From Mycobacteroides chelonae (GTDB taxonomy: Bacteria > Actinomycetota > Actinomycetes > Mycobacteriales > Mycobacteriaceae): a stretch of 64,000 nucleotides of DNA. The translations under genes were made by a program, and so were the position numbers. The stretch covers positions 248,001-312,000 of the forward strand of contig JACHLF010000001.1 in the NCBI GenBank assembly GCA_014204435.1, given 5' to 3'. Of the stretch, positions 56,467-57,314 are shown in pieces. Every line of letters starts with the position of its first letter. Position 1 is the stretch's first letter. The notes beneath the pieces were generated by a model, which was not told where the DNA came from, did not search any database, and was given only the letters and a program-made list of their open reading frames with translations.

Positions 56467-57314
56467 TCACCCAAAGAATTCCATAGGAAACTCGTCCCGG
56501 CTTGCTTCGTGAGTCCGAAGAATGAACCCTGCCAAAAGGGGCACGGCGAACGAGTATTTTCCGAATCTGTTCTTATGTACCAGTCCGCGCTCAATAAGGC
56601 TTGCGAGCATCTGATTTGCATGACTGGAAGAGAATGGCTTTTCAAGGAGTTCTCGGCCCTTTTCTACAATTTCAGATGTAGAGAATTCGCCATCAGGATC
56701 ATTCATATGTGCTATCACCCAGAGTAAGTCACGCTGTCTGTCTGTCTGTCTGTCTGTCTGTCTGTCTGTCTGTCTGTCTGTCTGTCTGTAGCCTTCTCCC
56801 AACGTCCTGCGAAAAAATCGCTGTCCAACCTCGCCTGAATCGCAACAATGTGGACCTCGGGCTCCTTGCCCATCTTCATCTGCGCAATCCATACGTCAAA
56901 AACCTCGCGGCATATAAATTGAATGAAATAGGGGTAGCCGCCCGAACGCTCGCAGATTTCTTCAACAGTGGATTCGCGGAACCGAATGGGGCAAGATGCA
57001 GTGTCCAGCGGCTTGGTCACCGCCTCTCGCGCATCCGTGGACTCTAGCCTGCCCAGGGTTACCACGCGAAACATCCGTTCACTGTAGGTGCGTGCTTCCA
57101 CCAGCTTAGAGAACATCGTTGGCAGTCCGGTAAGTACAAGCATAAACGGAATATTTGCCCGTTGCAGGTATTGGAATACATCCAATAGTGTCGATAGGGG
57201 ATACTGTTCTCGCGTCTGGTTGTCGCTCAGGTTTTGCGCTTCGTCATACGCAAATACCACGCGGCTGTTGCCGTACTGAGCTTGGTGCTCGCTGCTCGGT
57301 CCAGGTTGTGCCAT
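56467..57314 (-). pseudogene. AAA-ATPase remnant split by a tetranucleotide tract
   Basis: Two overlapping minus-strand frames make up one protein. The first (57314-56715) has a Walker B VVFAYDEAQNLSD, a sensor-type VLTGLP segment and SGGYPYFIQFICREVFD, and reads into DRQT repeats before stopping. The second (to 56467) gives QRDLLWVIAHMND and a winged-helix domain (STSEIVEKG, LASLIERGLVHKN). They join in frame only if the CTGT copy number is a multiple of three; here it is 14. Walker A is absent: the 5' end is replaced by a DUF2510 fragment. The family looks ORC/Cdc6-like. GC is lower than in neighbours, suggesting recent transfer. Confidence 0.72.
56734..56789. repeat. (CTGT)14 tetranucleotide microsatellite
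   Basis: Fourteen perfect CTGT units (56 bp), read as ACAG on the minus strand, where they encode repeating Asp-Arg-Gln-Thr. The flanks A-T-D-R-Q and Q-R-D-L-L suggest that an ancestral three-unit ACAG tract expanded. Slippage by single units would change the frame of the surrounding AAA-ATPase remnant. Confidence 0.95.

What the first reader, a model, noticed from the sequence alone, without database searches (positions are those of the whole stretch)
56734..56789. A (CTGT)14 microsatellite at a coding junction: possible slippage-controlled gene
Fourteen perfect tetranucleotide units lie exactly where an AAA-ATPase core passes into its winged-helix domain. The flanking codons (A-T-D-R-Q before, Q-R-D-L-L after) show the tract grew from a three-unit ACAG run in an ordinary sequence. 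Units in multiples of three keep the two halves in frame; 14 units put the protein out of frame, and adding one unit or losing two would restore it. Tetranucleotide contingency loci are well known in Haemophilus and Neisseria but would be unusual in a mycobacterium. The caveat is that the ATPase also lacks its Walker A region, so the tract may be drifting in a dead gene.
Basis: partly seen in the sequence, partly recalled or inferred. Interest (0 to 1): 0.72.

Follow-up and report, generated by a model that had tools for sequence, protein, structure and literature searches.

The report
Runaway repeat in a dead gene
A bacterial genome, likely mycobacterial, carries 14 perfect copies of a four-letter DNA unit inside an ATPase gene that has lost its front half; the tract likely grew by copying slippage from a three-copy stretch that would have coded for ordinary protein, and it is unlikely to be a working on/off switch.

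Summary
The (CTGT)14 tract at 56734-56789 is real in this assembly and far beyond chance. It lies exactly at the conserved Thr-Asp-Arg-Gln (TDRQ) codons that join an AAA-ATPase core to its C-terminal domain. Three units (ACA GAC AGA CAG) encode TDRQ, so 11 units look added; the two halves are now in different frames. (ACAG)5 or longer occurs in 1 of 396 genomes of the genus, this one.

A slippage-controlled gene is not supported. The ATPase has lost about 162 N-terminal residues, Walker A included, at a junction with a fragment of an unrelated DUF2510-type gene, whose own frame is another one and stops after 42 codons. The relic lies in a ~12-kb island at a tRNA-Tyr gene that is uninterrupted in three related genomes. 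None of 68 relatives read at DNA level, and none of 144 listed protein hits, shows an expanded tract.

Best reading: a seed supplied by a conserved motif expanded by replication slippage in a genome without detectable MutS, in a likely dead gene where a frameshift costs nothing. Which came first, truncation or expansion, and whether the length varies between isolates or cells, could not be tested.

The parts
56734..56789 (-). (ACAG)14 on the coding strand, (CTGT)14 on the + strand: perfect tetranucleotide tract at the TDRQ codons of the ATPase relic
   Evidence: TRF 100% matches, 14.0 copies; flanks and frames
56790..57284 (-). ATPase core piece (165 codons, no stop) with the Walker B-like motif VVFAYDEAQ; lacks about 162 N-terminal residues and Walker A
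   Evidence: 78% identical to P0001; aligned to 63 full-length relatives. Pfam gives no family for the piece alone
56467..56733 (-). C-terminal piece of the same gene (88 residues, no stop inside), probably winged-helix, in another frame than the core
   Evidence: 78% identical to P0121 over 86%; keeps 17 of 17 strongly conserved positions; Pfam only below cut-off for the piece and for a winged helix in relative L093
57284..57430 (-). 5' fragment of a DUF2510-type gene (ATG at 57372) and its upstream DNA, joined to the ATPase core at about 57284; its frame meets a stop at 57244-57246
   Evidence: 91% over 147 bases to G243; reading from the ATG; the name DUF2510 is from recall, not from a call
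55291..56448 (+). tyrosine recombinase (integrase) of the island, open frame of 385 aa
   Evidence: PF00589 E 5e-11, PF14659 E 3e-7; 84% to an integrase named from Mycobacteroides abscessus
55129..55171 (+). left island end: 43-base copy of the 5' half of tRNA-Tyr, 40 of 43 equal to the intact tRNA-Tyr that lies 12.1 kb further on, outside the window (L156:14213-14296)
55172..64000 (.). part within the window of a 12.04-kb island (to about 67211 in window numbering); the tRNA-Tyr at this site is uninterrupted in G050, G243 and G220
   Evidence: blastn of L156 against L157, L158, L160, tRNA comparison

Best explanation
The (ACAG)14 tract sits in an N-terminally truncated, likely dead AAA-ATPase gene on a tRNA-Tyr island, and it likely arose by replication slippage from a three-unit (ACAG)3 seed that would have encoded the conserved TDRQ motif. 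Shown: the tract fills exactly the place of TDRQ; the two halves are out of frame; Walker A and the native start are gone; the tRNA-Tyr site is uninterrupted in three relatives; no MutS domain was found in the genome. Inferred: that the seed had three units, that slippage added eleven, and that in a gene without function nothing selects against the frameshift. The tract would be expected to keep changing length without deciding whether a working ATPase is made. The order of truncation and expansion is not known.
For: Tract real and alone in the window; no other period-4 run over 13 bases in a 400-kb sample of the own genome. TDRQ stands at this place in P0001 and in relatives. The seed DNA ACAGACAGACAG occurs in 1 of 68 relatives (L093) and none is expanded; of 144 protein hits (120 listed of 695, 24 of 24) 125 hold TDRQ exactly once and none shows a repeated RQTD. 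Core starts at L093 residue 163, Walker A at 54, a Walker A motif in 62 of 63 relatives. Junction with a DUF2510-type fragment at about 57284, whose frame stops at 57244-57246. Foreign composition: core 53.0% and C-terminal piece 47.2% G+C against 64.7% for window 40001-55000. Island at tRNA-Tyr. No MutS_V match, NucS present.
Against: Apart from truncation and tract both pieces are hardly eroded: no stop in 165 and 88 codons, 54 of 59 and 17 of 17 strongly conserved positions kept, four of the five departures shared with the M. avium relative. So the gene died recently, or a fragment is still used. No close DNA relative was found, so selection on the pieces could not be measured. The three-unit seed of this lineage is inferred from codons, not seen. 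Slippage itself was not observed.
Confidence: 0.82

Rival explanations
1. A phase-variable (contingency) locus: slippage in the tract switches a fragment protein, for instance the separately readable C-terminal winged-helix piece, on and off.
For: Both frames around the tract are open (199- and 141-aa ORFs); the pieces are little eroded; no MutS domain was found. The GACA unit, the same repeat in rotation, is recorded in a Haemophilus gene for a putative glycosyltransferase (PMC2651432, passages).
Against: No native start, no Walker A; not a surface or modification gene; none of 68 relatives nor of 144 listed protein hits has a long tract; no second tract of this unit in the genome and no other period-4 run over 13 bases in a 400-kb sample.
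Confidence: 0.06
2. A variant of the best explanation: the tract expanded first, in an intact ATPase gene; the frameshift killed the gene and the truncation followed. (Its confidence is a share of the 0.82 above, not an addition to it.)
For: The truncation and the tract are separate lesions and nothing in one genome orders them; erosion is slight.
Against: In a used gene such a tract would face selection against frameshifts; none of 68 relatives has even a fourth unit.
Confidence: 0.25
3. Assembly or amplification artefact: the tract or its copy number is not in the organism.
For: Draft assembly of 21 contigs; amplification stutter is usual for such tracts (general knowledge).
Against: The tract, 56 bases, is shorter than usual reads and lies inside a contig of 1,075,161 bases; both flanks are neighbouring codons of one gene, so it is not a false join. 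A wrong copy number stays possible.
Confidence: 0.04

Closest known systems
Tetranucleotide contingency loci of Haemophilus influenzae (PMC2651432, passages seen)
   Same: long tetranucleotide tract inside a reading frame; the GACA unit occurs there too, once in the 3' region of a gene
   Different: there, with two exceptions in the four-genome study, the tracts lie at or just after the start codon, 12-21 loci per genome, with length differences between strains; here one tract in the middle of a truncated ATPase relic, variation unknown
Microsatellites of Mycobacterium tuberculosis (PMC2430213 and PMC3176237, passages seen)
   Same: genome without MutS-type mismatch repair, described as slippage-prone
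   Different: the longest tetranucleotide repeats reported in its coding regions have four units (PMC2430213); here 14
ATPase family of about 410 residues with AAA_16/AAA_22 similarity and a C-terminal winged-helix-like part (relatives in L018-L097)
   Same: 55-64% identity of the core in the 80 loci kept of 186 found, DEAQ motif, TDRQ joint
   Different: about 162 N-terminal residues and Walker A missing; frame broken at TDRQ
tRNA-integrated genomic islands with a tyrosine recombinase
   Same: integrase beside a tRNA-Tyr half, repeat at both ends, uninterrupted site in relatives
   Different: the repeat is the 5' half of the tRNA; excision not tested

Membership tests
Haemophilus/Neisseria-type tetranucleotide contingency locus | long, pure tetranucleotide tract | tested here: met
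   14 perfect units
Haemophilus/Neisseria-type tetranucleotide contingency locus | lies in an otherwise intact gene or its promoter, so that length sets expression | tested here: not met
   native start and Walker A missing, foreign 5' fragment in another frame with a stop
Haemophilus/Neisseria-type tetranucleotide contingency locus | length varies between isolates or cells | not testable with these tools
   one genome per species; exact flank not found in viral contigs; no reads
Haemophilus/Neisseria-type tetranucleotide contingency locus | several such loci in the genome | tested here: inconclusive
   no other (ACAG)5 in the whole genome; no other period-4 run over 13 bases in a 400-kb sample of 3.95 Mb; other units not searched genome-wide
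AAA_16/AAA_22 ATPase with winged-helix tail | Walker A | tested here: not met
   region absent; motif present in 62 of 63 relatives
AAA_16/AAA_22 ATPase with winged-helix tail | DEAQ motif and conserved core | tested here: met
   54 of 59 strongly conserved positions kept, though Pfam names no family for the piece alone; AAA_16 or AAA_22 is over its cut-off in 3 of 4 full-length relatives from other phyla (not L093) and in L099
AAA_16/AAA_22 ATPase with winged-helix tail | C-terminal winged helix | tested here: inconclusive
   17 of 17 conserved positions kept, but the Pfam winged-helix match is below cut-off and only in L093
tRNA-integrated genomic island | integrase next to a tRNA, repeat at both ends, uninterrupted site in relatives | tested here: met
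   the right flank is matched over 3.6 kb in G243 but only over 254 and 114 bases in G050 and G220

The most novel reading that the evidence does not exclude
The tract is a living tetranucleotide switch in a mycobacterium: cells of one culture carry different lengths, and the length decides whether the winged-helix tail is made fused to the ATPase remnant or apart from it. It would be the first tetranucleotide contingency locus of the genus, as far as the paper searches show.
Probability: 0.06. Interest if true: 0.72.

Novelty: new member of a known kind. Interest (0 to 1): 0.36.

Why it matters
Mycobacteria lack MutS-type mismatch repair, yet long tetranucleotide tracts seem very rare in them (for this unit, 1 of 396 genus genomes). 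This locus suggests one reason: a seed that a conserved motif happens to supply may expand once the gene no longer matters. It is a natural place to measure tetranucleotide slippage in such a genome, and a warning that a long tract inside a reading frame is not by itself a phase-variable gene.

Tried and rejected
Phase-variable gene: not the leading reading, because the gene has no native start and no Walker A. Defence gene: PADLOC gave only weak matches for full-length relatives (2 of 4 proteins with any, best E 8.6e-4); ten genes beside eight full-length relatives gave Pfam families for eight of the ten, no family shared as a neighbour in a pattern. No function was assigned. Phage gene: 4 phage records matched only the DUF2510-type stretch, 1 matched the ATPase piece at 28.6%; 90 plasmid records matched the piece, each under 60%. 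Conspecific isolates: none in reach; the exact flank is absent from viral contigs. The integrase cluster P0145 (100%, 16 members) could not be opened. Another genome with the unit: of 296 class genomes only G818 besides this one has (ACAG)5 or more, a six-unit tract seven codons after a stop in one frame, not in this ATPase. The reversed-pattern control is void here, since the reversed unit is the same repeat in rotation. Structure prediction was not run: it would not decide the question.

Full report
The tract. Tandem Repeats Finder gives CTGT x 14.0, 56734-56789, 100% matches. It is the only long microsatellite of the window; in 60 Markov windows of the same dinucleotide make-up the longest period-4 run was 17 bases against 56. 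On the minus strand it is (ACAG)14. The codons before it end ...LDSDFFAGRWEKA and those after begin RDLLWVIAH, in another frame.

The seed. The nearest protein, P0001 from Mycobacterium avium 10-5581 (78% identity over 97% of the core query), reads ...RWDKATDRQRDLLWVIAHV without a break. Three units, ACA GAC AGA CAG, spell TDRQ. Of 86 relatives fetched (80 loci kept of 186 in genome contigs; 6 in viral contigs), 68 gave an open frame with both motifs I asked for (18 dropped); 68 of 68 carry a TDRQ-like joint, most often TDRQRELL (28) or TDRQRDLL (10). Their codons vary: 1 of 68 (L093, a planctomycete) has exactly ACAGACAGACAG, and none has a period-4 run over 13 bases near it. Of 144 protein hits (120 listed of 695, 24 of 24), 125 hold TDRQ, each once, and none shows a repeated RQTD; many are partial. 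So a three-unit seed is what the conserved motif can give by codon chance, and the expansion was seen in this genome only.

Rarity. (ACAG)5 or longer is in 1 of 396 genus genomes, this one (1 of 361 among the more complete), and in 2 of 296 class genomes: this one and G818, where a six-unit tract follows a stop in one frame and lies in no such ATPase. This concerns one unit type. In 20 stretches (400 kb) of the own genome the longest period-4 run is 13 bases; in 68 loci (281 kb) of other genomes of the genus it is also 13. In M. tuberculosis coding regions the longest tetranucleotide repeats have four units (PMC2430213, passages).

The gene is broken at its 5' end. Aligned to 63 relatives of 370-470 aa (23 of 86 dropped by the filters; alignment made), the core starts at residue 163 of L093; Walker A, GLRGVGKT, is at 54 there, and 62 of 63 relatives have such a motif. 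Upstream of about 57284 the DNA matches, at 91% over 147 bases, the start and leader of a DUF2510-type gene in G243, which there runs on in a long open frame (the domain name is from recall). From that gene's ATG at 57372 the frame is not the ATPase's and stops at 57244-57246 after 42 codons. So no native start leads into the ATPase core.

But it is not much eroded. Both pieces are free of stops; 54 of 59 strongly conserved positions are kept in the core and 17 of 17 in the C-terminal piece. Of the five departures four are also in P0001 and one (a proline to serine) is not. By this measure the core ranks below all 63 relatives (0.915, their minimum 0.932), but P0001 on its own columns does too (0.931, minimum 0.944), so this may be a trait of the lineage rather than decay. 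The breakage looks recent, or a fragment is still used.

Setting. An integrase (55291-56448) stands next to a 43-base copy of the 5' half of tRNA-Tyr (55129-55171), 40 of 43 equal to the intact tRNA-Tyr 12.1 kb downstream, outside the window. In G050, G243 and G220 the left flank (about 2.2 kb) runs straight into one intact tRNA-Tyr. On the right the match goes on for 3.6 kb in G243 but only for 254 and 114 bases in G050 and G220, whose DNA differs beyond. So 12.04 kb is an inserted island. The integrase is 84% identical to one named from M. abscessus. The ATPase pieces have 53.0% and 47.2% G+C against 66.1% for the integrase and 64.7% for window 40001-55000. Close relatives were not found elsewhere in the order: 1 of 397 genomes at E 1e-25, this one; in the genus 21 of 248, own included, match at E 0.001, the best other at 37%. 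So the ATPase looks acquired from outside. Ten genes beside eight full-length relatives gave no neighbour pattern; its function stays open.

Mechanism. The MutS_V model finds nothing in this genome, while 11 of 14 control genomes ring; NucS is present. Papers describe mycobacteria as slippage-prone for lack of mismatch repair (PMC2430213, PMC3176237; passages). Slippage from three to fourteen units in a gene without function is the simplest account: inferred, not observed. In H. influenzae the switching tetranucleotide tracts sit, with two exceptions in the four-genome study, at the start of genes (PMC2651432, passages); this one does not. A 2006 paper knew of no microsatellite-mediated phase variation in mycobacteria (PMC1501019, passages); since then phase variation by other repeats has been described in M. 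tuberculosis (PMC12817950, passages; PMC11898584, search listing), so the idea is not absurd in the genus. Searches listed no tetranucleotide contingency locus of a mycobacterium by title or abstract start, and one search found no paper; most of the listed papers were not opened.

Limits. One assembly, one strain, no reads, no transcripts; units other than ACAG were not searched genome-wide; relatives were chosen by motif filters; clustering at 90% and pseudogene annotation may hide conspecific copies. Conclusion: observation confirmed, dead-gene reading favoured (0.82, either order of the two lesions), switch unlikely (0.06).

Noticed in passing
55129-55171 and L156:14213-14296: The left tRNA-Tyr half equals the intact right copy at 40 of 43 bases; the right copy, not the left, equals the uninterrupted tRNA of G050, G243 and G220 there. 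The 5' half, not the 3' end, is the repeat, an unusual layout for a tRNA island.
   Followed up: partly
57523-58320: Alpha/beta hydrolase ORF (57611-58300) whose DNA similarity to G220 (76%) starts 88 bases upstream of its first ATG; its 5' end may be damaged.
   Followed up: no
L156:10667-11684 (outside the window, same island): Three similar small lipoprotein-like genes in a row; two were tested and both match DUF4333.
   Followed up: partly
L156:9856-10185: HNH endonuclease gene in the island.
   Followed up: no
G000:C8:24315-24713: A distant relative of the ATPase (32% identity, open frame of 398, no stops) elsewhere in the same genome.
   Followed up: no
L189:82-137 (start of contig C5): Runs of 14 G and 27 C near a contig end, probably an assembly end effect.
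   Followed up: no
L191:1501-1524 (G818): A six-unit CTGT tract seven codons after a stop in one frame in another genome of the class.
   Followed up: partly
G243, L159:9235-9741: Open DUF2510-type gene that shows what the fragment at 57284-57372 comes from; a second, inverted 32-base match lies beside it.
   Followed up: partly
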